Part shown: positions 3,567 to 12,214 of the stretch, in pieces | How the letters are laid out: each line of letters begins with the position of its first letter | Numbering within the stretch: position 1 is the stretch's first letter | Virus record (IMG/VR): IMGVR_UViG_3300037284_000008 | Location: 1-23,415 of that record | Direction: 5' to 3' (one strand) | Length of the DNA: 23,415 nt | Origin: a virus | The notes under the pieces: model-generated | Told to the model about the DNA's origin: nothing | The model's database searches: none | The model's input: only the letters and a program-made list of their open reading frames with translations | Translations under genes and position numbers: made by a program

Positions 3567-4166
3567 ATGTTTTCGATCGACCCTGAGTTCCGAGCATTCA
3601 TTCCACCGCTGACTGACGACGAGCGCACCAAGCTCGAGGCGTCTCTCGTCGCCGCTGGCCGCGCGCGCGATCCGCTAACTGTCTGGCGGGGCGGCGGTGA
3701 GGGCGGCGCGGACGTGCTGCTCGACGGGCACAACCGTTACGAAATCTGCACTCGGCTAGGGTTGCCGTTCGAAGCCGAGGCGATTGAACTGCCCGACCGC
3801 GCTGCCGCCATGGCGTGGATGTTCGAGCATCAGCTGGCGAGGCGGAACTTGTCGCGGGCGCAGCGGGTGGCGATCGCCGTGCTGCACGGCCTCGAGGCTC
3901 CACCCGGCGTGGCGGCGAACTTGGCTCGCAAAATGGCCGAAGACGAGGACGGGCGCCGCCGCTTGGGGTTTGTCGTCGCGGGCAAGCTGCGGTCGGTGCA
4001 GGCGGCTCATACTGACTGGAGCCGCGCTCGCGGCGAGGGCAAGCCGAAGCGCCGGCGCCGGCTGTCGATAGAGGACGCAATCGCAGCCACCGCAAGGCTA
4101 AGCCCCGAGGACAAGCTGGCACTTGCCGAACGGCTGGTGCTGGAAGCAGAGGCTTCCAATGGGTAA
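3567..4166 (+). CDS. ParB-like nuclease-fold protein
   Basis: The 199-residue product starts at ATG 3567 after GGAG (3554-3557); TTG 3552 is a weaker alternative. The N-terminal half has the ParB/Srx fold pattern: FIPPLTDDERTKLEASLVA, then DPLTVWRG, a VLLDGHNRYEICTRLG segment with the GHNRYEI box (ParB box II is GHRR-like), then a helix with LARRNLSRAQR. This domain binds DNA and in some relatives hydrolyses CTP or cuts DNA. The C-terminus has a basic KRRRR stretch and a final helix (SPEDKLALAERL). No ParA partner is in the window, so a phage regulatory or nuclease role is more likely than partition. The 3' end overlaps the repeat-protein gene by eight bases. Confidence 0.8.
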   Translation: MFSIDPEFRAFIPPLTDDERTKLEASLVAAGRARDPLTVWRGGGEGGADVLLDGHNRYEICTRLGLPFEAEAIELPDRAAAMAWMFEHQLARRNLSRAQRVAIAVLHGLEAPPGVAANLARKMAEDEDGRRRLGFVVAGKLRSVQAAHTDWSRARGEGKPKRRRRLSIEDAIAATARLSPEDKLALAERLVLEAEASNG

Positions 4167-4941
4167 GCGCGTCGCCGAGATGACGCCCGAAGAGCGCGAA
4201 CGGAAGCGCGAACGCAATCGTCAGTACCGCGCTTCGATGACCGACGAAGAGCGAGAGCGAGAGCGAGAGCGCCGGCGCCGTTACTACGCGGAGATGACCG
4301 ACGAACAGCGCGAACGGAAGCGCGAACGGGAGCGCGAACGGGAGCGCGAGCGGAAGCCCGATTACAACCGCCGGCGCCGCGCCTCGATGACCGACGAGCA
4401 GCGCGAGCGAGAGCGCGAGTATCAGCGCTGGCGCCGCGCCTCGATGACCGACGAAGAGCGCGAGCGGCAACGCGAATGGGCGCGCGAGTACCGGCGCCGC
4501 CACTACGCCTCTATGACCGACGAGGAGCGCGAGCGGAGGCGCGAGTACAACCGCCGCTACCGCGCCTCTATGACCGACGAGGAGCGCGAGCGGAGGCGCG
4601 AGTACAACCGCCGCTACCACGCCTCGATGACCAACGAACAGCGCGAACGGAAGCGTGAGTACGAGCGCCGCCGCCACCGCGCATCTATGACCGACGAACA
4701 GCGCGAACGCGAGCGCGAGCGCGAGCGCCGCGCCTCTATGACCGACGAACAGCGTGAACGTGAGCGAGAGCGCGATCGCCAGCGCCGCGCCTCTATGACC
4801 GACGAACAGCGTGAACGTGAGCGAGAGCGCAGTCGCCGGCGCTACGCGATGATGACCGACGAACAGCGCGAGCGGAAGCGTGAGTACGAGCGCGAGTACC
4901 AGCGCCGCCGCTACCACGCCAAGAAAGGCAACAACCCATGA
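4159..4941 (+). CDS. Arg/Glu-rich tandem-repeat protein, 260 aa
   Basis: Start taken at ATG 4159, which overlaps the ParB-like gene by eight bases; an upstream in-frame ATG at 4123 would lie deep inside that gene. After seven residues the whole protein is about twelve copies of a roughly 19-23-residue unit of the form MTDEQRERxREYxRRYRAS, ending in KKGNNP. Such alternating Glu/Arg sequence predicts one long charged helix (ER-type single alpha-helix or coiled coil), net basic. Similar MTPE/MTDE-Arg-rich repeats occur in phage and other genomes without a firm function that I know of. DNA/RNA binding or a molecular spacer are possibilities only. Adjacent units are nearly identical in DNA, so copy number probably changes quickly. 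Confidence 0.75.
   Translation: MGKRVAEMTPEERERKRERNRQYRASMTDEERERERERRRRYYAEMTDEQRERKRERERERERERKPDYNRRRRASMTDEQREREREYQRWRRASMTDEERERQREWAREYRRRHYASMTDEERERRREYNRRYRASMTDEERERRREYNRRYHASMTNEQRERKREYERRRHRASMTDEQRERERERERRASMTDEQRERERERDRQRRASMTDEQRERERERSRRRYAMMTDEQRERKREYEREYQRRRYHAKKGNNP
4180..4925 (+). repeat. In-frame tandem repeats, mostly 57-69 bp units, about 12 copies
   Basis: Units begin at successive ATGACC(G/C)A codons, e.g. 4513, 4570, 4627, 4738, 4795 and 4852. The 57-bp spacing between 4513 and 4570, and between 4738 and 4795, is exact, and the first pair is identical over about 55 bases (4506-4560 versus 4563-4617). Other units vary by insertion of extra RE codons. The repeat encodes the body of the Arg/Glu-rich protein. 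Confidence 0.85.
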
Positions 4942-7231: not shown

Positions 7232-7491
7232 CTGCCGCCCGCCTCCCCCGCGTCGGCGCGCTCGTGCTCGTGCGGTGGGAGGATGCCGACGGCGTACTTG
7301 AGCGCAGCGCCGGCGACCGCGACTCGCCGACGCCTGAGGCCGACGCTGAAACCGTGGGCTGGCTATGCAAGCGCACACGGCGCAAGCTACACGTTGCGTG
7401 CGAGCGCTTCCCCAGAGGTTGCCGCGACCGCTATCGCGGCGTGACGCGCATCCCGATCGGCTGGGTGCGCGAAGTGGTAAGGATCGCCTAG
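7228..7491 (+). CDS. Hypothetical protein, 87 aa, last gene of + strand arm
   Basis: Start set at GTG 7228, overlapping the methyltransferase stop; TTG 7213 in frame is less likely. The product is basic and beta-rich (RVGALVLVRWEDADG at the N-terminus; IPIGWVREVVRI at the end), with HVACERFPRGCRDRYRG in between, and resembles an SH3-like small domain. Function not recognised. It ends in a TAG at 7489-7491 that shares the palindrome CTAG with the stop of the convergent gene, leaving no room for a terminator between the arms. Confidence 0.65.
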   Translation: MTAARLPRVGALVLVRWEDADGVLERSAGDRDSPTPEADAETVGWLCKRTRRKLHVACERFPRGCRDRYRGVTRIPIGWVREVVRIA

Positions 7492-7895
7492 CGCCCCGCG
7501 CAGCCCGTCTCGCTCGCGTGGTACGAGCAGATCCGCTCCTCGAGCCCAGCGATGCGGGAGCGGTCCGCCTGCAGCTTCGTGCGTACCCGTCCGACGTCGT
7601 CTTGCAGGTCGAATATCCTTCGATCCCGTTCAATCAGCCGTTGCTCTAGCTGGTCGATCCGTTCAATGATCGCGCCGTCGTCACTCCCGACGTGCACCTG
7701 CCCTGCCATGGCGGCAGCGCCCAACGTGAACATCCCGGTGATCGTCGCGACGAGCGCACCTCCGACCGCGCTAATCACCGCAGCCCAAATCGGACGACCT
7801 CGCAAGCGGTCAGACCACGAGCGTCGTGGCGTTGCGGGCGGGCGCAGATCACCGTCCCGCTCGACGGCCGCCAGTCGATACTCTCCGCGCGGCAT
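7488..7895 (-). CDS. Membrane protein with coiled coil (spanin-like candidate)
   Basis: Start is ATG 7895 (TGATG with the upstream stop, GGGG seven bases before) or GTG 7898. About 33 polar, basic residues precede one long hydrophobic segment (WAAVISAVGGALVATITGMF and onward, about residues 36-65). The C-terminal 70 residues are heptad-like and charged (IIERIDQLEQRLIERDRRI, then DVGRVRTKLQADRSRIAGLEER) and end in a short Cys-containing tail. A cytoplasmic N-terminus and a periplasmic coiled coil fit an inner-membrane spanin (Rz-like) or another lysis accessory protein. It is the last gene of the lysis cassette. No sequence signature proves the spanin role. Confidence 0.6.
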   Translation of the reverse strand: MPRGEYRLAAVERDGDLRPPATPRRSWSDRLRGRPIWAAVISAVGGALVATITGMFTLGAAAMAGQVHVGSDDGAIIERIDQLEQRLIERDRRIFDLQDDVGRVRTKLQADRSRIAGLEERICSYHASETGCAGR

Positions 7896-8107
7896 CACGC
7901 GACCCCGACTAGTTGCTCCACGTAGTGCAGCCGTTTCTCGACCGCGACCGCGCGCTCCTCGTCTTGCTCGTGGAGCAATGTTACGAGGCGCAGCACTTCG
8001 CCGAGCTCGGCGGTCTGCTCATTCACGGCGTCGGCTAGTACGCGCTGGCGCTCCTCGAGGGCGCGCAGCCGCTTCGTGATTTCGTTTTGGCACTCGATCC
8101 GATTCAT
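7895..8107 (-). CDS. Small coiled-coil protein, 70 aa
   Basis: Begins at ATG 8107, which makes an ATGA overlap with the lysozyme stop; an in-frame upstream start at 8134 would overlap more. Nearly the whole protein is charged helix with Leu/Val heptads (EITKRLRALEERQRVLADAV, then ELGEVLRLVTLLHEQDEE). There is no membrane segment or export signal. It may partner with the downstream membrane/coiled-coil protein, an inference from adjacency and shared architecture. Function unknown. Confidence 0.6.
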   Translation of the reverse strand: MNRIECQNEITKRLRALEERQRVLADAVNEQTAELGEVLRLVTLLHEQDEERAVAVEKRLHYVEQLVGVA

Positions 8108-8721
8108 GACACAAGCTCCAACGGCCAGTAGCACTCCGCCGGGTCCAGCGCCGAGTTCGCTTCGACGACCGCCGCGTTGCGGAACGCGATTTTCTGCTCG
8201 ACGTTTCGTCGCACGACGCCGGGGTTGCCAGCTTCGCGCAGATGACTTTCCTTCGCCGCGCGCCCCCAGTCACGCGCCCGGCATGCCTCGCGGTGCTTCG
8301 GCCATTTTGCGAGGCTAGCACCCGCAGCCCACGCGCGCGACAATGCGCCTAGCTGCGCGTCCGCAGGCCACTCAGCGAAGTCGCGGAACGTGCCTCGCAG
8401 CATGCCTGCATTCGCTTCCAGGCGCCGCTCAGTGAGAGCGTCGATATCACGCTCAGCCAGCCGTAGCGCGCCACGATACGCGGCGGCAACGCGCCCCCGC
8501 GGCATCGCCTTGACTCGCGACCATTCGTCGAACACTTCGGCGGGTGTCGCCACCCGCCCGTCGATCCGCCAAGGCAGCTGCAGCGCCAGCCCGATCGGGT
8601 CTATGAGCGCGCCCACGCCGACGGTCACGAGTCCGCGGACGTCGAGGTACGGCCACGCGACGCGCCCCTCGAGCGGCTCGCTGAAGTCGTGCCACAGGGC
8701 GAGGACGGAGGGGCGGATCAC
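8104..8721 (-). CDS. T4-lysozyme-like muramidase (endolysin)
   Basis: The 205-residue product begins at GTG 8721, which overlaps the upstream stop and has AGGAG six bases ahead. The N-terminal region LEGRVAWPYLDVRGLVTVGVG carries the Glu-Asp-Thr triad of T4-type lysozymes at E18, D27 and T33; the spacing (9 and 6) equals that of T4 lysozyme (E11, D20, T26). The later region (LGALSRAWAAG, HREACRARDWGRAAKES, NPGVVRRNVEQKIAF) fits the helical lobe of phage muramidases. It would cut the glycan strands of peptidoglycan at lysis. No signal peptide or SAR-type N-terminal segment is seen, so it should need a holin. Confidence 0.82.
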   Translation of the reverse strand: MIRPSVLALWHDFSEPLEGRVAWPYLDVRGLVTVGVGALIDPIGLALQLPWRIDGRVATPAEVFDEWSRVKAMPRGRVAAAYRGALRLAERDIDALTERRLEANAGMLRGTFRDFAEWPADAQLGALSRAWAAGASLAKWPKHREACRARDWGRAAKESHLREAGNPGVVRRNVEQKIAFRNAAVVEANSALDPAECYWPLELVS

Positions 8722-8903
8722 GAAGCTCTCCTGGGCCACAGCTCCCACGGGCCCCACGGGTCGTCGTAGCCGGCGCACGCTTCTTCGGTCTCGTCCGCTT
8801 CGTTCGCTTCGCGCGCGGCGGCGTCTTCCGCGCGCTGGCGCTCAATGGCCGCGCGTGCGCTGCGCCGCTCCTGGCGGTCTGCTTTGGTGCGTTGCGCTTT
8901 CAT
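8718..8903 (-). CDS. Small Arg/Ala/Glu-rich protein, 61 aa
   Basis: Start at ATG 8903, overlapping the amidase stop (ATGA). The first 45 residues are a charged helix (QERRSARAAIERQRAEDAAA); the C-terminus is Trp/Pro-rich (DDPWGPWELWPRR). There is no hydrophobic segment, so it is not a holin. Position between two peptidoglycan enzymes suggests a lysis accessory role, but nothing in the sequence shows one. Confidence 0.5.
   Translation of the reverse strand: MKAQRTKADRQERRSARAAIERQRAEDAAAREANEADETEEACAGYDDPWGPWELWPRRAS
8726..8732 (-). promoter_or_regulatory. Ribosome binding site of the muramidase gene
   Basis: On the minus strand this reads AGGAGAG; the AGGAG core ends six bases before the GTG at 8721. 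It lies inside the end of the preceding gene and decides the muramidase start over the longer GTG at 8778. Confidence 0.7.
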
Positions 8904-9379
8904 GCCAGCATTGGGTCGAGGCTGAAGAACCCAGTCCAATCGCCGATATGCTTTCGGTGCTCCGCGACGACACCGTAGCGCTTTCCGTCGAAACTGTTGC
9001 CGTCGACGGTGATGACGGTCCCGTCGCCGGGTACTCGCACGACGATCGCGCCGTGCTGCCCGCGGTGCCGGTACGCCTCCGCGCCGACGTGAGGCAACGG
9101 CTTGAACTGCAGGTCATGCGGCGCCTCGAAGCCGCGCCCCGGCAGCCACACCCAGTCAGCGGGCGGCTCGGCGCCATGCGCCGCGCGGTACCGCTCGCGG
9201 AGGCAGTGCAGGACGAACGCGCGGCACCACGACAGCGGGCGCCCCCTCGCGTCTACCGGGTCCGCTTGCGGAGGGCGCAACGTGTCGAGCCACACGCGCT
9301 CGTGTACGTCGCCCGCGCCGACGTAGCTGAGCGCAATCACGGCTAGCGCTTCGCGCGCGATCGAGATGTCAGTTACCAC
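8900..9379 (-). CDS. CHAP/NlpC-like peptidoglycan amidase or endopeptidase
   Basis: Start taken at GTG 9379 (MVTDISIAREAL), 11 bases inside the preceding 40-codon gene. The 159-residue protein has the papain-like signature of CHAP domains: a Cys in LSWCRAFVLHC (C52), a His opening a strand in GQHGAIVVRV (H109) and an Asn in TVDGNSFDG (N128), spaced as a Cys-His-Asn catalytic set. The N-terminal helix (AREALAVIALSYVGAGDV) is typical. Such enzymes cut peptide cross-links or the amide bond of peptidoglycan. It may act in lysis with the muramidase, or be a virion-associated enzyme. The gene is on the minus strand of the lysis cassette. Confidence 0.68.
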   Translation of the reverse strand: MVTDISIAREALAVIALSYVGAGDVHERVWLDTLRPPQADPVDARGRPLSWCRAFVLHCLRERYRAAHGAEPPADWVWLPGRGFEAPHDLQFKPLPHVGAEAYRHRGQHGAIVVRVPGDGTVITVDGNSFDGKRYGVVAEHRKHIGDWTGFFSLDPMLA

Positions 9380-9491
9380 GGCAGCACCCCGCAACGAACA
9401 TGCCCACGCTGGTCACGACGGCCCAGTAGACGACGTCGATCGTCAGCGGCAGGTCTCCGCTGCAGACCAGCGCGGCGAGTGCTTGAGTCAC
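9369..9491 (-). CDS. Very short membrane protein, 40 aa (holin-like candidate)
   Basis: A short frame from GTG 9491 to TGA 9371-9369. Support: GGAGG eight bases before the GTG, a GTGA overlap with the previous gene, and a single clean hydrophobic segment (VVYWAVVTSVGMFVAG, about residues 20-35) with a short N-terminus. The alternative 84-codon frame across this stretch is Ser/Arg-rich and looks like a shadow. A single-span protein just ahead of a cell-wall hydrolase could be a pinholin/holin or antiholin, by position only. Confidence 0.6.
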   Translation of the reverse strand: MTQALAALVCSGDLPLTIDVVYWAVVTSVGMFVAGCCRGN

Positions 9492-9643
9492 CGCCGTCGC
9501 CTCCGCGCGACGATGTCTCGCAACCGCTGGCGCCGCGCGTCGATGTCGGCCGCGTCGATGCGCTCACCACCCCGCCGGAGCAGCGGCGCGACGACGCGGA
9601 GCAGGAGCTCCGCGGCGCGGAGGGCAAGCTCGGTTCGGCTCAT
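9488..9643 (-). CDS. Short basic amphipathic protein, 51 aa
   Basis: Runs from ATG 9643 to TGA 9490-9488. The ATG overlaps the stop of the Cys-rich lipoprotein (ATGA) and GAGGAG lies eight bases upstream. The sequence begins MSRTELALRAAELLLRVVAP, a Leu-rich amphipathic helix, and ends in a run of arginines (IVARRRRR). It could be a small membrane-active or membrane-associated lysis protein, but no family is recognised. Confidence 0.6.
   Translation of the reverse strand: MSRTELALRAAELLLRVVAPLLRRGGERIDAADIDARRQRLRDIVARRRRR
9500..9504 (-). promoter_or_regulatory. Ribosome binding site of the 40-codon membrane gene
   Basis: Minus strand GGAGG, eight bases before GTG 9491. It is embedded in the Arg-rich end of the upstream gene and is the main reason to accept such a short frame. 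Confidence 0.6.
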
Positions 9644-9879
9644 CGCCTACACTCCTCAGCGTGTGCCAAGATTTGCGCGTCGCACGCAGCCAGCCCAACG
9701 TCGTAGCAGAGGTCGTCTTCCCCGCGGCACGCCTCGACGACAGACTCGGCGCACGCGCGGTCGAGCGCCTCCGCGCTGCGTGGGCTGCACGGGTTTGCGG
9801 CGCACCCGCCGAGCACGATCGGCGCGAGGCCGAGCGCGATGCGGAGGTCCCGCCAGAGCTTGCGCCAGCGCCGCCTCAC
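9640..9879 (-). CDS. Cys-rich lipoprotein, 79 aa
   Basis: Start GTG 9879 overlaps the upstream stop (GTGA) and follows a purine-rich GAGGGCGGAA. A basic N-terminus (MRRRWRKLWRDLR) precedes a hydrophobic stretch (IALGLAPIVLGGC) with an LGGC lipobox; cleavage before C26 would leave a lipid-anchored mature protein of about 54 residues. That mature part has six further Cys (NPC, ACA, EAC, LCY, ACD, ECR), spaced for disulfides in the periplasm. It lies in the lysis cassette. Candidate roles are an outer-membrane spanin partner or a superinfection-exclusion lipoprotein; sequence alone does not decide. Confidence 0.68.
   Translation of the reverse strand: MRRRWRKLWRDLRIALGLAPIVLGGCAANPCSPRSAEALDRACAESVVEACRGEDDLCYDVGLAACDAQILAHAEECRR
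9652..9657 (-). promoter_or_regulatory. Ribosome binding site of the 51-codon gene
   Basis: Minus strand GAGGAG, eight bases before ATG 9643, inside the last codons of the lipoprotein gene. Confidence 0.6.
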
Positions 9880-10148
9880 TTCCGCCCTCGCACCGCCTTC
9901 ACGGCGTCGGCGACGATCTCCTGGGCGATCGCTTTGACCTCGTCGGCTTGCGTGTTCTCCTCGCCAACGATGCGCACGTAAGAATCGACAACGAAGAGCG
10001 CGACGCCGGTCAGTACCGGAGCGAGCACGCCCACGGTAGCAGCCCAAGGCCCGACGGTGACTCCTAGCGTCGCGAGCAACGCTAGCAGCGCGGCGACGAG
10101 GACCGAAATTGAGGCGACAGTGGCGGTGTTTTTGACGGGTGTAGCCAT
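9876..10148 (-). CDS. Holin-like protein with two membrane segments, 90 aa
   Basis: Start ATG 10148. Two hydrophobic segments (about 12-33, VASISVLVAALLALLATLGV region; about 37-55, VGVLAPVLTGVALFVV) with a short loop, then a charged C-terminal helix (ENTQADEVKAIAQEIVADAV) ending in KAVRGRK. Size, topology and basic tail fit phage holins, which make membrane pores that release or activate endolysin. It lies upstream of both cell-wall enzymes in the same transcription direction. The 5' side has no strong ribosome-binding site; it begins four bases after the protease stop, so coupling is likely. Confidence 0.72.
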   Translation of the reverse strand: MATPVKNTATVASISVLVAALLALLATLGVTVGPWAATVGVLAPVLTGVALFVVDSYVRIVGEENTQADEVKAIAQEIVADAVKAVRGRK

Positions 10149-10152
10149 GAGG

Positions 10153-10668
10153 TTATTCTAGCACATTTCGAGGCAGCTCGCACCTAGCGCGCTGCTTTCC
10201 GCACGAGACGACGACGCACACGAGCGCGCCATCTGAATCCCACACCCCGGACCCCGAGTCCCCGGGACGGCACGGGTAGGCAAGCTGAGCCCCTAGGTGA
10301 CCGTGCCAATCAACCCACTCAACCGTTGCCGGAATCGACTCACCGCGCCCGGTCGTGACCGTGACCGTCTCACCGCGTCGCGGCGTCCCGACGGCTGCCC
10401 ATCGCGCGACTCGTCGCTCGGGGGTGTGCAGCTCAGCAAGGTCCCGCACCGGGTGACGTCGTGCTACACGCGCCCGGGTGCCCCGCTCGACCGTCGCCCC
10501 GTCACCGTCCACACAATGCGCCGCGGTGACGAGCGCTCGGGGTCCGATCCAGGTCGCCCCGCAGCGGCCGCCGTCAAGCGGGACAGTGAGCGACGAGACC
10601 TCGGGAGCCGTCGCGGGTTGGGCCACACACGACGCCAGCAACAGTGCCGCAGCTGCGGCTCGAGTCAC
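10153..10668 (-). CDS. Trypsin-like serine protease with lipoprotein signal
   Basis: The 171-residue product starts at GTG 10668 (GTGA overlap). A short signal with lipobox LLASC (C14) predicts export and lipid anchoring. The S1 family blocks are present: TAAHCV (H51), DLAEL (D76 as the candidate Asp) and the PGDSGSG block (S138). C36 and C52 fit the conserved disulfide next to the active His. The protein is shorter than typical trypsin-like enzymes (about 220 residues), with compact loops and a C-terminus ending SCGKQRARCELPRN. It would act outside the cytoplasm, in periplasm or outer membrane. Its place between a lectin-like tail gene and the holin-like gene suggests envelope attack or protection from superinfection; the substrate is unknown. 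S1 proteases are unusual in phage genomes. Confidence 0.8.
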   Translation of the reverse strand: MTRAAAAALLLASCVAQPATAPEVSSLTVPLDGGRCGATWIGPRALVTAAHCVDGDGATVERGTRARVARRHPVRDLAELHTPERRVARWAAVGTPRRGETVTVTTGRGESIPATVEWVDWHGHLGAQLAYPCRPGDSGSGVWDSDGALVCVVVSCGKQRARCELPRNVLE

Positions 10669-11612
10669 GGGATGGCCCCCAGCCCGTGGTAGTCGTCGAT
10701 CTGCGCCATGAGAGCTTCAACCTCGGTATCTGTTAGAGGTACGGAAGCTCCGCTGGCGACGTAGACGTCGAGTATGTCACCTTCAAGAAAAGCAGCTAAG
10801 CCTCCGTTGTTGGAGCCAAACCTGGTAAAGCCACCAATTGCCCTTGCGGTGTAACTCAGACCGGAGTCAATCTTTGATCCGTCTAACCAAATGTCGGCCG
10901 TGCCTCCAGACCCGTCGAAAACGAAAGCCAACACGTGATCGCCTGTAGAGGCGGCAGTGGCTGAGTCGCGCCAAGCCCCGTCGTAAAACGCCCAGAAACC
11001 GCTATGCACACCCATAATTAGGCGTCCAGTAGCGGCATCGGCTAAGTAACCCCCGGCTGTATCAAGGCTGACAGCGAACACGACCACGTGGCTCGTGTCA
11101 GCTGTCACATCTCCGTCTAGCAACAGACTGTCGTCCGTGCCGTCGAAATCGACTGACGCGCTACCCGGGTAAGCAGGCTGCTCCGTGGTATCCGATTGAT
11201 CTGCGGAGATGCCGCCGATCTGATCAACCCAGGCAGAAACCCCGGTCGCGGTAGTCACACCCCGCTTCGCGTCCCAGTTTACAGTCCCTGCTCGAACGTT
11301 CGTCGTGCTCGTGTCGGACGCCGTACCGACAGTGACCTCGACGGTGACACCGGTGCCGACCATGGCAGCCGTCGGGAAACCCGTGATCGAGAATGCACCG
11401 CCGGAGACCGTATCGGTGCCTAGCGTCTGACCGTTGACGGTGGCTGTAGCGGTGCTGCCATCGGCGGCTGTAGTAGTCCCCTCGATTGCGTCGCCAGTAT
11501 TCTCCTGGCTCTCGAACAGGGTAGTCGGTGTACTCGTGATCGTGACGGTGTCACCCCCAGCCGACCGGCTCGGCCCCAGCCCCAACGAAAGACCTAGACT
11601 CATGCCCGCCAT
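10665..11612 (-). CDS. LamG/ConA-like lectin domain tail protein (receptor binding)
   Basis: I start at ATG 11612 (MAGMSLGLS); ATG 11603 is possible too. The 315-residue product has a Gly/Ser-rich beginning, an Ig-like region (about 50-120; GTTTAADGSTATATVNG, VTVEVTVGTASDT), then a concanavalin/LamG-type jelly roll to the C-terminus (SVDFDGTDDSLLL, LAFVFDGSGGTADIWLDG, RFGSNNGGLAAFLEGDI). Such domains bind glycans, so it is probably a tail-tip or fibre adhesin. The 3' part, about 10,700-11,100, has visibly lower GC (about 53% counted over three lines, 10741-10920) than the surrounding genes, suggesting separate acquisition of the receptor-binding part. Confidence 0.7.
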   Translation of the reverse strand: MAGMSLGLSLGLGPSRSAGGDTVTITSTPTTLFESQENTGDAIEGTTTAADGSTATATVNGQTLGTDTVSGGAFSITGFPTAAMVGTGVTVEVTVGTASDTSTTNVRAGTVNWDAKRGVTTATGVSAWVDQIGGISADQSDTTEQPAYPGSASVDFDGTDDSLLLDGDVTADTSHVVVFAVSLDTAGGYLADAATGRLIMGVHSGFWAFYDGAWRDSATAASTGDHVLAFVFDGSGGTADIWLDGSKIDSGLSYTARAIGGFTRFGSNNGGLAAFLEGDILDVYVASGASVPLTDTEVEALMAQIDDYHGLGAIP

Positions 11613-11614
11613 TC

Positions 11615-12214
11615 TCAACCCCGCTCCTCGTCCCACCAAACCACGACGCCAACGTCTCTGGAGGTTACATCTTGCTGGACCTGGAAAACGAGATCCGACC
11701 CGTCGAACCCTAGAGACCAGTCAATCGACACACCCGATCGGCGCCCCGTCAGTGTACCGGTGATCGCAGTGTTTGCGGCGCCTACCGTGTCAGCAGTCAC
11801 GTTGTGGAGGTAGTAGTTACCACCCCCTCGCTCGACCTCGAATTCGAGGTCCCGAATATCAGCCCTAAAGGCGCTCTCCCGGAACGTCACCCGAATCCCG
11901 ATCCTGCGGATCTTCCCGTCTGCACTCGCCAGGCTCGCGAGCGCGTGTGACCATACGGTGATGAGACTCACGCCCACGCCGATCGACGAGATGGGCCTCT
12001 CATAATCGTGGAAATTGTGGAGGGGCAAGTCGTTGCAGTCGTAACCAGAGCCGTCCCCGGCCGCGAAAAGCATCGTGCTGAGCGGCGCGATGACGTTGAC
12101 CTTGCGCGCGTTGTCCGGGGTGACGGTCAAGCCGACGAAATCGAGCCCGCCCTGTAGCTCAAGCTCCACGCCGTCGTTGAGCACGCGACCGAAGTATGCG
12201 TCTAGTGCAGGCAT
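11615..12214 (-). CDS. Tail-associated hypothetical protein, 199 aa
   Basis: Start ATG 12214. No family recognised. The product is beta-rich with many Val, Asp and Gly (GVELELQGGLDFVGLTV; SLITVWSHALASLASADG; RIGIRVTFRE; LEFEVERGGGNYYLHN) and ends VGVVVWWDEERG. No membrane segment is seen. Placed between small tail/fibre genes, it is likely a virion component of the tail tip or a fibre-assembly partner, by position only. Confidence 0.6.
   Translation of the reverse strand: MPALDAYFGRVLNDGVELELQGGLDFVGLTVTPDNARKVNVIAPLSTMLFAAGDGSGYDCNDLPLHNFHDYERPISSIGVGVSLITVWSHALASLASADGKIRRIGIRVTFRESAFRADIRDLEFEVERGGGNYYLHNVTADTVGAANTAITGTLTGRRSGVSIDWSLGFDGSDLVFQVQQDVTSRDVGVVVWWDEERG

What the first reader, a model, noticed from the sequence alone, without database searches (positions are those of the whole stretch)
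10153..10668. Exported trypsin-like lipoprotein protease in a phage lysis cassette
Seen: lipobox LLASC, TAAHCV and PGDSGSG in one short gene that overlaps its tail neighbour and runs into the holin-like gene. Known: S1 proteases are rare in phages and normally act outside the cytoplasm. Inferred: it may cleave an envelope, surface-layer or outer-membrane protein during lysis, mature a lysis protein, or change receptors to block reinfection.
Basis: partly seen in the sequence, partly recalled or inferred. Interest (0 to 1): 0.75.

Follow-up and report, generated by a model that had tools for sequence, protein, structure and literature searches.

The report
Exported protease in phage lysis module
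A phage late-gene cluster carries a small membrane-anchored protein-cutting enzyme next to its cell-bursting genes, and similar enzymes sit in the same kind of place in several unrelated phages, so it probably helps break or alter the host's outer surface at the end of infection, although its target is unknown.

Summary
The gene is real. On the MINUS strand, 10153-10668 encodes a 171-aa protein with a lipoprotein signal (LASC), TAAHCV, D76 and PGDSGSG. Pfam calls it Trypsin_2 (1.4e-7, above cutoff). An AlphaFold2 model (pLDDT 76) superposes on chymotrypsin-fold proteases (HtrA/DegS, Rv3671c, 3C-like; Z about 16). dN/dS against the one close relative is 0.15. It lacks trypsin's specificity Asp and any PDZ domain, so "trypsin-like" describes the fold, not Lys/Arg cleavage.

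It sits in a co-directional late cluster: tail fibre (4-nt overlap), protease, hairpin membrane protein, Cys-rich lipoprotein, CHAP-like and lysozyme-like proteins, TM coiled-coil protein. The close relative (L001) lies in a phage whose head and tail genes are unrelated, so the protease travels with a late/lysis module. Exported S1 proteases lie in or beside lysis genes in several other phages; L215 is clearest: holin-like, SAR-type lysozyme, S1 lipoprotein, Rz/Rz1. Many other phage S1 proteases lie elsewhere, so enrichment is only suggestive.

Best reading: an envelope-anchored protease made with the lysis proteins, cutting envelope proteins at lysis; substrate unknown. Receptor destruction and lysogenic conversion remain possible. 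No searched paper describes S1 proteases as lysis-module parts; similar genes are annotated in cultured phages.

The parts
10153..10668 (-). Exported S1 (Trypsin_2) serine protease, predicted lipoprotein, 171 aa
   Evidence: Pfam PF13365 1.4e-7; AF2 model and fold matches; dN/dS 0.15
10627..10668 (-). Signal sequence and lipobox LASC (Cys14 the predicted lipidated residue; Val at +2)
   Evidence: Sequence; conserved as LVSC in L001
10513..10527 (-). TAAHC, catalytic His51 and Cys52 of the standard S1 disulfide with Cys36
10441..10443 (-). Catalytic Asp76
   Evidence: Invariant in 23 phage S1 proteins; not used to select them
10246..10266 (-). PGDSGSG, catalytic Ser138
10665..11639 (-). Tail-fibre-like protein; overlaps the protease start by 4 nt (GTGA)
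   Evidence: Position after baseplate genes; no family hit; N-terminal ~105 aa related to the L001 fibre, remainder not
11615..12214 (-). Tail/fibre-associated protein shared with L001 (76% over 153 aa)
9876..10148 (-). Two-TM hairpin protein, holin-like
   Evidence: phrog_13404 holin E 0.025; weak; unrelated to the protein at the same place in L001
9640..9876 (-). Small Cys-rich lipoprotein (start uncertain)
   Evidence: Lipobox GGC; related lipoprotein at the same place in L001, 36% over 56 aa
8900..9394 (-). CHAP-like protein, possible endolysin (start uncertain)
   Evidence: Pfam CHAP E 0.03, below cutoff
8104..8778 (-). Lysozyme-like protein with E37-D46-T52 at the spacing of T4 lysozyme E11-D20-T26
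   Evidence: Motif conserved in L001; no Pfam, PHROG or PDB hit; T4 spacing from own knowledge
7488..7898 (-). TM plus coiled-coil protein, Rz-like in layout
   Evidence: 95% identical in L001, dN/dS 0.06; PHROG hits of unknown function only

Best explanation
The gene makes an exported serine protease of the S1/Trypsin_2 type (HtrA-like catalytic domain without PDZ), anchored by an N-terminal lipid to an envelope membrane, probably the outer one. It is translated together with the last tail gene and the lysis genes, so it accumulates late. Most likely it cuts envelope proteins at the end of infection (for example outer-membrane or wall-linking proteins), helping the envelope fail and virions come free, as an adjunct to holin, endolysin and spanin-like proteins. 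Shown: fold, triad residues, purifying selection, export signal, gene context, recurrence beside lysis genes. Inferred: lipidation, outer-membrane location, timing, catalytic activity, that it acts in lysis, and the substrate.
For: Trypsin_2 above cutoff; chymotrypsin-fold model, Z about 16; D76 invariant along with the motif residues; lipobox in both relatives; dN/dS 0.15; coupled to the tail and lysis genes, no terminator or same-strand promoter between them. Shared with L001, whose head and tail genes are unrelated, together with the TM coiled-coil, lysozyme-like and lipoprotein genes. S1 lipoproteins in lysis modules of other phages: L215 between SAR-type lysozyme and Rz/Rz1, L139 near a PHROG endolysin at 2e-63; exported S1 also beside L094/L099 Rz-like and M15 endolysin and L010 XhlA/hemolysin-like.
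Against: No substrate, no activity data. Lysis genes of the window are identified only weakly (holin-like E 0.025, CHAP E 0.03, lysozyme by motif). Many phage S1 proteases are not near lysis genes; over-representation is mild and rests on hand classification (P about 0.04). The host and its envelope type are unknown.
Confidence: 0.48

Rival explanations
1. Receptor destruction or superinfection exclusion: the envelope-anchored protease cuts the phage's own receptor or another surface protein late in infection, so that progeny do not bind debris and sibling phages are shut out. It would resemble T5 Llp in purpose, by cleavage rather than binding.
For: Directly follows tail-fibre or tail-spike genes in the window, L001, L139 and L217 and near them in L026/L115; lipoprotein like Llp (PMC9586334).
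Against: Protease 91% identical in L001 while the C-terminal part of the adjoining fibre is unrelated; in L215 it lies between endolysin and Rz, away from fibres.
Confidence: 0.2
2. Lysogenic conversion gene: an exported protease placed at the lysis/tail-fibre boundary but serving the lysogen, for example in surface remodelling.
For: Staphylococcal phages carry pfam13365 genes on maps with their lysis cassettes (PMC6507118); mosaic exchange limited to the ORF; the L139 phage has a serine recombinase.
Against: Overlaps the tail gene and has no promoter or terminator of its own; no tyrosine or serine recombinase in the window or in the 44.8-kb L001 contig, though both may be fragments.
Confidence: 0.13
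3. Maturation or release of a lysis protein: it cleaves the holin-like, spanin-like or signal-anchored endolysin protein to time lysis.
For: Sits among these genes here and in L215; a protease step was proposed, and then doubted, for the Mu releasin (PMC9239132).
Against: The adjacent small membrane protein is unrelated in L001 while the protease is conserved.
Confidence: 0.12
4. Virion part or tail-fibre processing enzyme.
For: Overlaps the tail-fibre gene; a separate group of exported S1 proteins (L209-L229) sits just before tape-measure-like genes.
Against: The lipoprotein signal would send it to the envelope, not to cytoplasmic assembly; it is shared with a phage that has unrelated tail genes.
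Confidence: 0.05

Closest known systems
PHROG 9683 'protease' and annotated phage genes such as the 'putative trypsin-like peptidase' of Rhizobium phage RHph_TM3_3_14B (QIG68660.1)
   Same: Phage-encoded exported S1 proteases; the Rhizobium gene lies a few genes after lysozyme and Rz-like genes
   Different: Window protein is a weak PHROG member (7.5e-4), shorter, and a predicted lipoprotein inside the late cluster; no function is recorded for the family
HtrA/DegP/DegS periplasmic proteases (S1C) and M. tuberculosis Rv3671c
   Same: Catalytic domain fold, Z about 16; envelope location
   Different: No PDZ domain; 171 aa; lipoprotein anchor; phage late gene
Phage T5 Llp superinfection-exclusion lipoprotein (PMC9586334)
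   Same: Phage lipoprotein acting in the periplasm
   Different: Llp binds FhuA and is no protease; no sequence relation claimed
Caulobacter LypA/LypC of the CARD-NLR-like system that lyses cells to release gene transfer agents (PMC13236601)
   Same: Trypsin-like peptidase activity needed for phage-type lysis
   Different: Multidomain host immune-type proteins, not exported lipoproteins; a precedent in function, not a relative by test here
Phage-borne exfoliative-toxin-type S1 proteases of staphylococcal prophages (named only)
   Same: S1 proteases carried by phages, listed with maps of lysis cassettes (PMC6507118)
   Different: Lysogenic-conversion toxins of Gram-positive prophages; sequence relation not tested here

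Membership tests
S1 (PA clan) serine peptidase, Trypsin_2 | Profile match above curated cutoff | tested here: met
   PF13365 32.7 bits against 27.6; PF00089 24.8 against 20.6
S1 (PA clan) serine peptidase, Trypsin_2 | His-Asp-Ser triad residues in order | tested here: met
   H51, D76, S138; D76 invariant in 23 relatives without being selected for
S1 (PA clan) serine peptidase, Trypsin_2 | Double beta-barrel fold | tested here: met
   AF2 pLDDT 76; Foldseek E about 5e-6 and VIA-align Z about 16 to chymotrypsin-fold proteases; the last 10 residues are poorly modelled
S1 (PA clan) serine peptidase, Trypsin_2 | Triad atoms brought together; proteolytic activity | not testable with these tools
   Coordinates not provided; no assay
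Trypsin in the strict sense (Lys/Arg specificity) | Asp at position 189 of the S1 pocket (Ser minus 6) | tested here: not met
   Pro132 at that position; the full-length trypsins of other contigs have Asp
HtrA/Deg proteases | Protease domain followed by PDZ domain(s) | tested here: not met
   171 aa in all, no PDZ hit
Bacterial-type lipoprotein | Signal sequence with lipobox and Cys | tested here: met
   LASC at 11-14; LVSC in L001
Bacterial-type lipoprotein | Lipidation and membrane location | not testable with these tools
   Needs expression and labelling
Rz1-type outer spanin | Short Pro-rich lipoprotein nested in or paired with Rz | tested here: not met
   171-aa enzyme domain, not nested in another gene; in L215 the S1 gene is separate from Rz/Rz1
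Phage lysis-cassette component | Position among holin, endolysin and spanin genes | tested here: inconclusive
   Window neighbours are weakly identified; clear in L215
Superinfection-exclusion lipoprotein | Blocks phage adsorption to its receptor | not testable with these tools
   Needs an adsorption assay; only the lipoprotein feature and nearby fibre gene are shared

The most novel reading that the evidence does not exclude
S1 lipoprotein proteases are an unrecognised, recurrent part of Gram-negative phage lysis modules: an envelope-anchored protease that dismantles protein links of the outer membrane, acting beside or in place of spanins.
Probability: 0.25. Interest if true: 0.75.

Novelty: new variant of a known kind. 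Interest (0 to 1): 0.5.

Why it matters
Phage lysis of Gram-negative cells is described with holin, endolysin and spanins (or disruptins). A protease step at the envelope would add a protein-cutting component, and because genes such as the one in L215 sit in a textbook cassette, the idea can be tested directly by gene removal. Even if the role is receptor destruction or superinfection exclusion, it would be a catalytic version of a job so far ascribed to binding lipoproteins.

Tried and rejected
Reading the coordinates on the plus strand: many stops; the gene is on the minus strand. Relatives among cultured phages: no tblastn hit for P0001 at E<0.01, nor for L010 or L056 at E<0.01 and L094 at E<1e-4. 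The MT835528 and MW462191 hits are HtrA-type proteins among bacterial-looking genes and say nothing about phage context. Baseplate and TM coiled-coil queries in viral contigs gave nothing beyond L001's contig. The AF2 model of the lysozyme-like protein was too poor (pLDDT 42) and was not searched; a profile of the lysozyme-like pair found nothing in PDB. The genome-contig scan gave only short, distant matches in bacterial contigs. The virion-protease reading was set low because of the lipoprotein signal and because the gene is shared between phages with different tails. Enrichment near lysis genes was computed only as a rough binomial with an assumed 16% background and hand classification (P about 0.04), so it is not claimed as established. 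Literature: no paper in the held library was found to describe S1 proteases as lysis-module parts; a 2025 survey of viral lytic proteins mentions no such protease. Absence from this library is not absence from the field.

Full report
WHAT IS THERE. The finding's coordinates are right but the gene lies on the minus strand: 10668 (GTG) to 10153 (TAA), 171 aa. It has a 13-residue signal sequence ending in the lipobox LASC, then TAAHCV (H51), RDLAEL (D76) and PGDSGSG (S138). Pfam assigns Trypsin_2 (PF13365, 32.7 bits, E 1.4e-7) and Trypsin (PF00089, 24.8 bits), both above their curated cutoffs; PHROG 9683 'protease' matches at 7.5e-4. The gene starts inside the stop of the tail-fibre-like gene 10665-11639 (GTGA, 4-nt overlap) and stops 4 nt before the ATG of a 90-aa two-TM protein, 9876-10148. 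No terminator and no same-strand promoter was found in 9800-11000.

IT IS UNDER SELECTION. The window is a 23.4-kb IMG/VR fragment. One close relative was found, in contig IMGVR_UViG_3300037504_000456 (L001): 91% identical protein. Differences fall at codon positions 1/2/3 as 8/10/41, dN 0.054, dS 0.353, ratio 0.15. Around the gene, nucleotide similarity between the two covers 10177-10653 only, that is, it stays inside the ORF.

FOLD. AlphaFold2 on an alignment of 23 phage S1 proteins gave mean pLDDT 76, pTM 0.69, with a beta-strand pattern. Foldseek against PDB returned calicivirus and picornavirus 3C-like proteases, Rv3671c, DegS and HtrA (best E about 5e-6). VIA-align gave Z 15-16 over 135-156 residues to Deg2, DegP, HtrA1, Rv3671c and Tulane virus protease. 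The 23-sequence profile finds Deg/HtrA chains at up to 1e-31. TAAHC, D76, G136, S138 and G139 are invariant; TAAHC and GxSG were used to select the sequences, so of these only D76 is an independent result. C36 and C52 match the standard S1 disulfide, which fits folding outside the cytoplasm. The residue at the trypsin S1-pocket position is Pro132, not Asp, and there is no room for a PDZ domain. So the protein is an S1/PA-clan protease with an HtrA-like catalytic domain, but neither a trypsin in specificity nor an HtrA in architecture.

SURROUNDINGS. Downstream on the same strand come a holin-like hairpin protein (phrog_13404, E 0.025), a small Cys-rich lipoprotein (9640-9876), a CHAP-like protein (8900-9394, CHAP E 0.03), a lysozyme-like protein (8104-8778) with E37-D46-T52 at the spacing of T4 lysozyme's catalytic residues (spacing from own knowledge), and a TM coiled-coil protein (7488-7898). 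Each identification is weak by itself; together, in this order at the end of the tail cluster, they look like a lysis module. L001 has the same order: tail fibre, protease, an unrelated small two-TM protein, a related lipoprotein, a possible NlpC- or CHAP-like protein, a related lysozyme-like protein (54%), the TM coiled coil (95%). The rest of that 44.8-kb contig (sheath-like, baseplate-like, portal-like genes by position and length) shares almost nothing with the window. The protease is therefore carried between otherwise unrelated phages with a late module, while the adjacent hairpin protein and the C-terminal part of the adjoining fibre are not conserved with it.

SURVEY. Scans of IMG/VR for VTAAHCV, ITAAHCV, VTAAHCL, VTAAHC[I] and a GC-rich LTAAHC[VI] pattern gave many loci. 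From the first three scans 70 proteins had both motifs, in 17 similarity clusters. The largest cluster (33) is mostly full-length trypsins, and about 17 proteins of the last scan form a group near tape-measure-like genes. Among the shorter exported ones, several lie in or beside lysis genes. L215: holin-like 1462-1653, SAR-type Phage_lysozyme (6e-39; phrog_7 2e-50), S1 lipoprotein (Trypsin_2 7e-16, phrog_9683 5.5e-15), Rz-like (phrog_5151 0.008), nested Rz1-like lipoprotein, then a terminase-like gene. L139: endolysin (phrog_181 2e-63), beta-helix tail spike, S1 lipoprotein (6.6e-10), lipoprotein, TM protein. L094/L099: S1, Rz-like (phrog_739 1.8e-3), TM protein, M15 endolysin (2.5e-19). L010: XhlA/hemolysin-like (phrog_1193 2.9e-7) then S1. 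L026/L115 and L217: tail-fibre-like genes followed at once or after small genes by an S1 lipoprotein and small lipoproteins. L056: DUF5675 neighbour (7.5e-20). L024: CHAP three genes away. Cultured Rhizobium phage RHph_TM3_3_14B carries an annotated 'putative trypsin-like peptidase' some genes after lysozyme and Rz-like genes. Many others are in early, packaging or unclear regions. With hand classification and an assumed 16% background, adjacency is only mildly over-represented (P about 0.04), so I treat it as a recurrent pattern, not a proven association.

MECHANISM. Shown: S1 fold and triad residues, export signal, purifying selection, late co-directional position, recurrence in lysis modules. 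Inferred: lipidation, outer-membrane placement (Val at +2; Gram-negative host assumed), activity, and a role at lysis. The most economical account is that it is made late with the other lysis proteins and cuts envelope proteins, easing outer-membrane failure and virion release. Receptor destruction is the main rival because of the tail-fibre neighbours, but the protease is conserved where the fibre is not, and in L215 it sits between endolysin and Rz. Lysogenic conversion is possible (staphylococcal phages carry pfam13365 genes with their lysis cassettes, PMC6507118); no recombinase was found in the window or L001's contig, and the gene has no unit of its own. Maturation of a lysis protein has been discussed for the Mu releasin (PMC9239132), but here the neighbour varies while the protease does not.

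KNOWN AND NEW. Phage S1 proteases are known as annotated genes and as PHROG 9683, so the protein itself is a member of a known kind. Its placement as a lipoprotein in lysis modules of several unrelated phages is not described in the papers I could search. The nearest functional precedents are T5 Llp (a periplasmic lipoprotein acting on the receptor, PMC9586334) and the Caulobacter Lyp system, in which trypsin-like peptidase activity is needed for lysis and release of gene transfer agents (PMC13236601). Both differ in kind. I rate it a new variant of a known kind, interest 0.5.

Noticed in passing
L209-L229 (viral contigs, e.g. L210:1034-2095, L220, L221): A separate group of exported S1 proteases with an identical VSSGDSGGGI motif and a conserved N-terminal region, lying just before tape-measure-like genes in about 17 contigs; a tail-linked exported protease would be odd in its own right.
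   Followed up: no
L018, L019, L020, L030, L045, L080 and others: About 30 viral contigs encode full-length trypsins (DSCQGDSGGPL, with the specificity Asp) that begin with a lipoprotein-like signal, some with extra C-terminal sequence; context not worked out.
   Followed up: partly
window 4123-4941: Protein made of repeats of RASMTDEERER (8 SMTDE copies; tandem DNA repeats with a 57-bp period at 4173-4893).
   Followed up: no
L001 6675-6745 and 7150-7220: Two near-identical intergenic elements, promoter-like (TTGACC, 17-18 nt, TACTAC) followed by CTGGCCCGGCAGTCTCCGGGAC, before the lipoprotein gene and before the next gene; possible late promoters.
   Followed up: partly
window 9640-9876 and L001 6768-7013: Small Cys-rich lipoprotein family conserved next to the protease (36% over 56 aa), a possible partner.
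   Followed up: partly
L005 1802-3209: Run of three overlapping genes with lipoprotein-like starts in a 128-kb viral contig, the middle one an S1 protease.
   Followed up: no
L007 6577-7599 and L012 1602-2546: Exported S1 proteases followed by a collagen-like (Gly-X-Y) tail in viral contigs.
   Followed up: no
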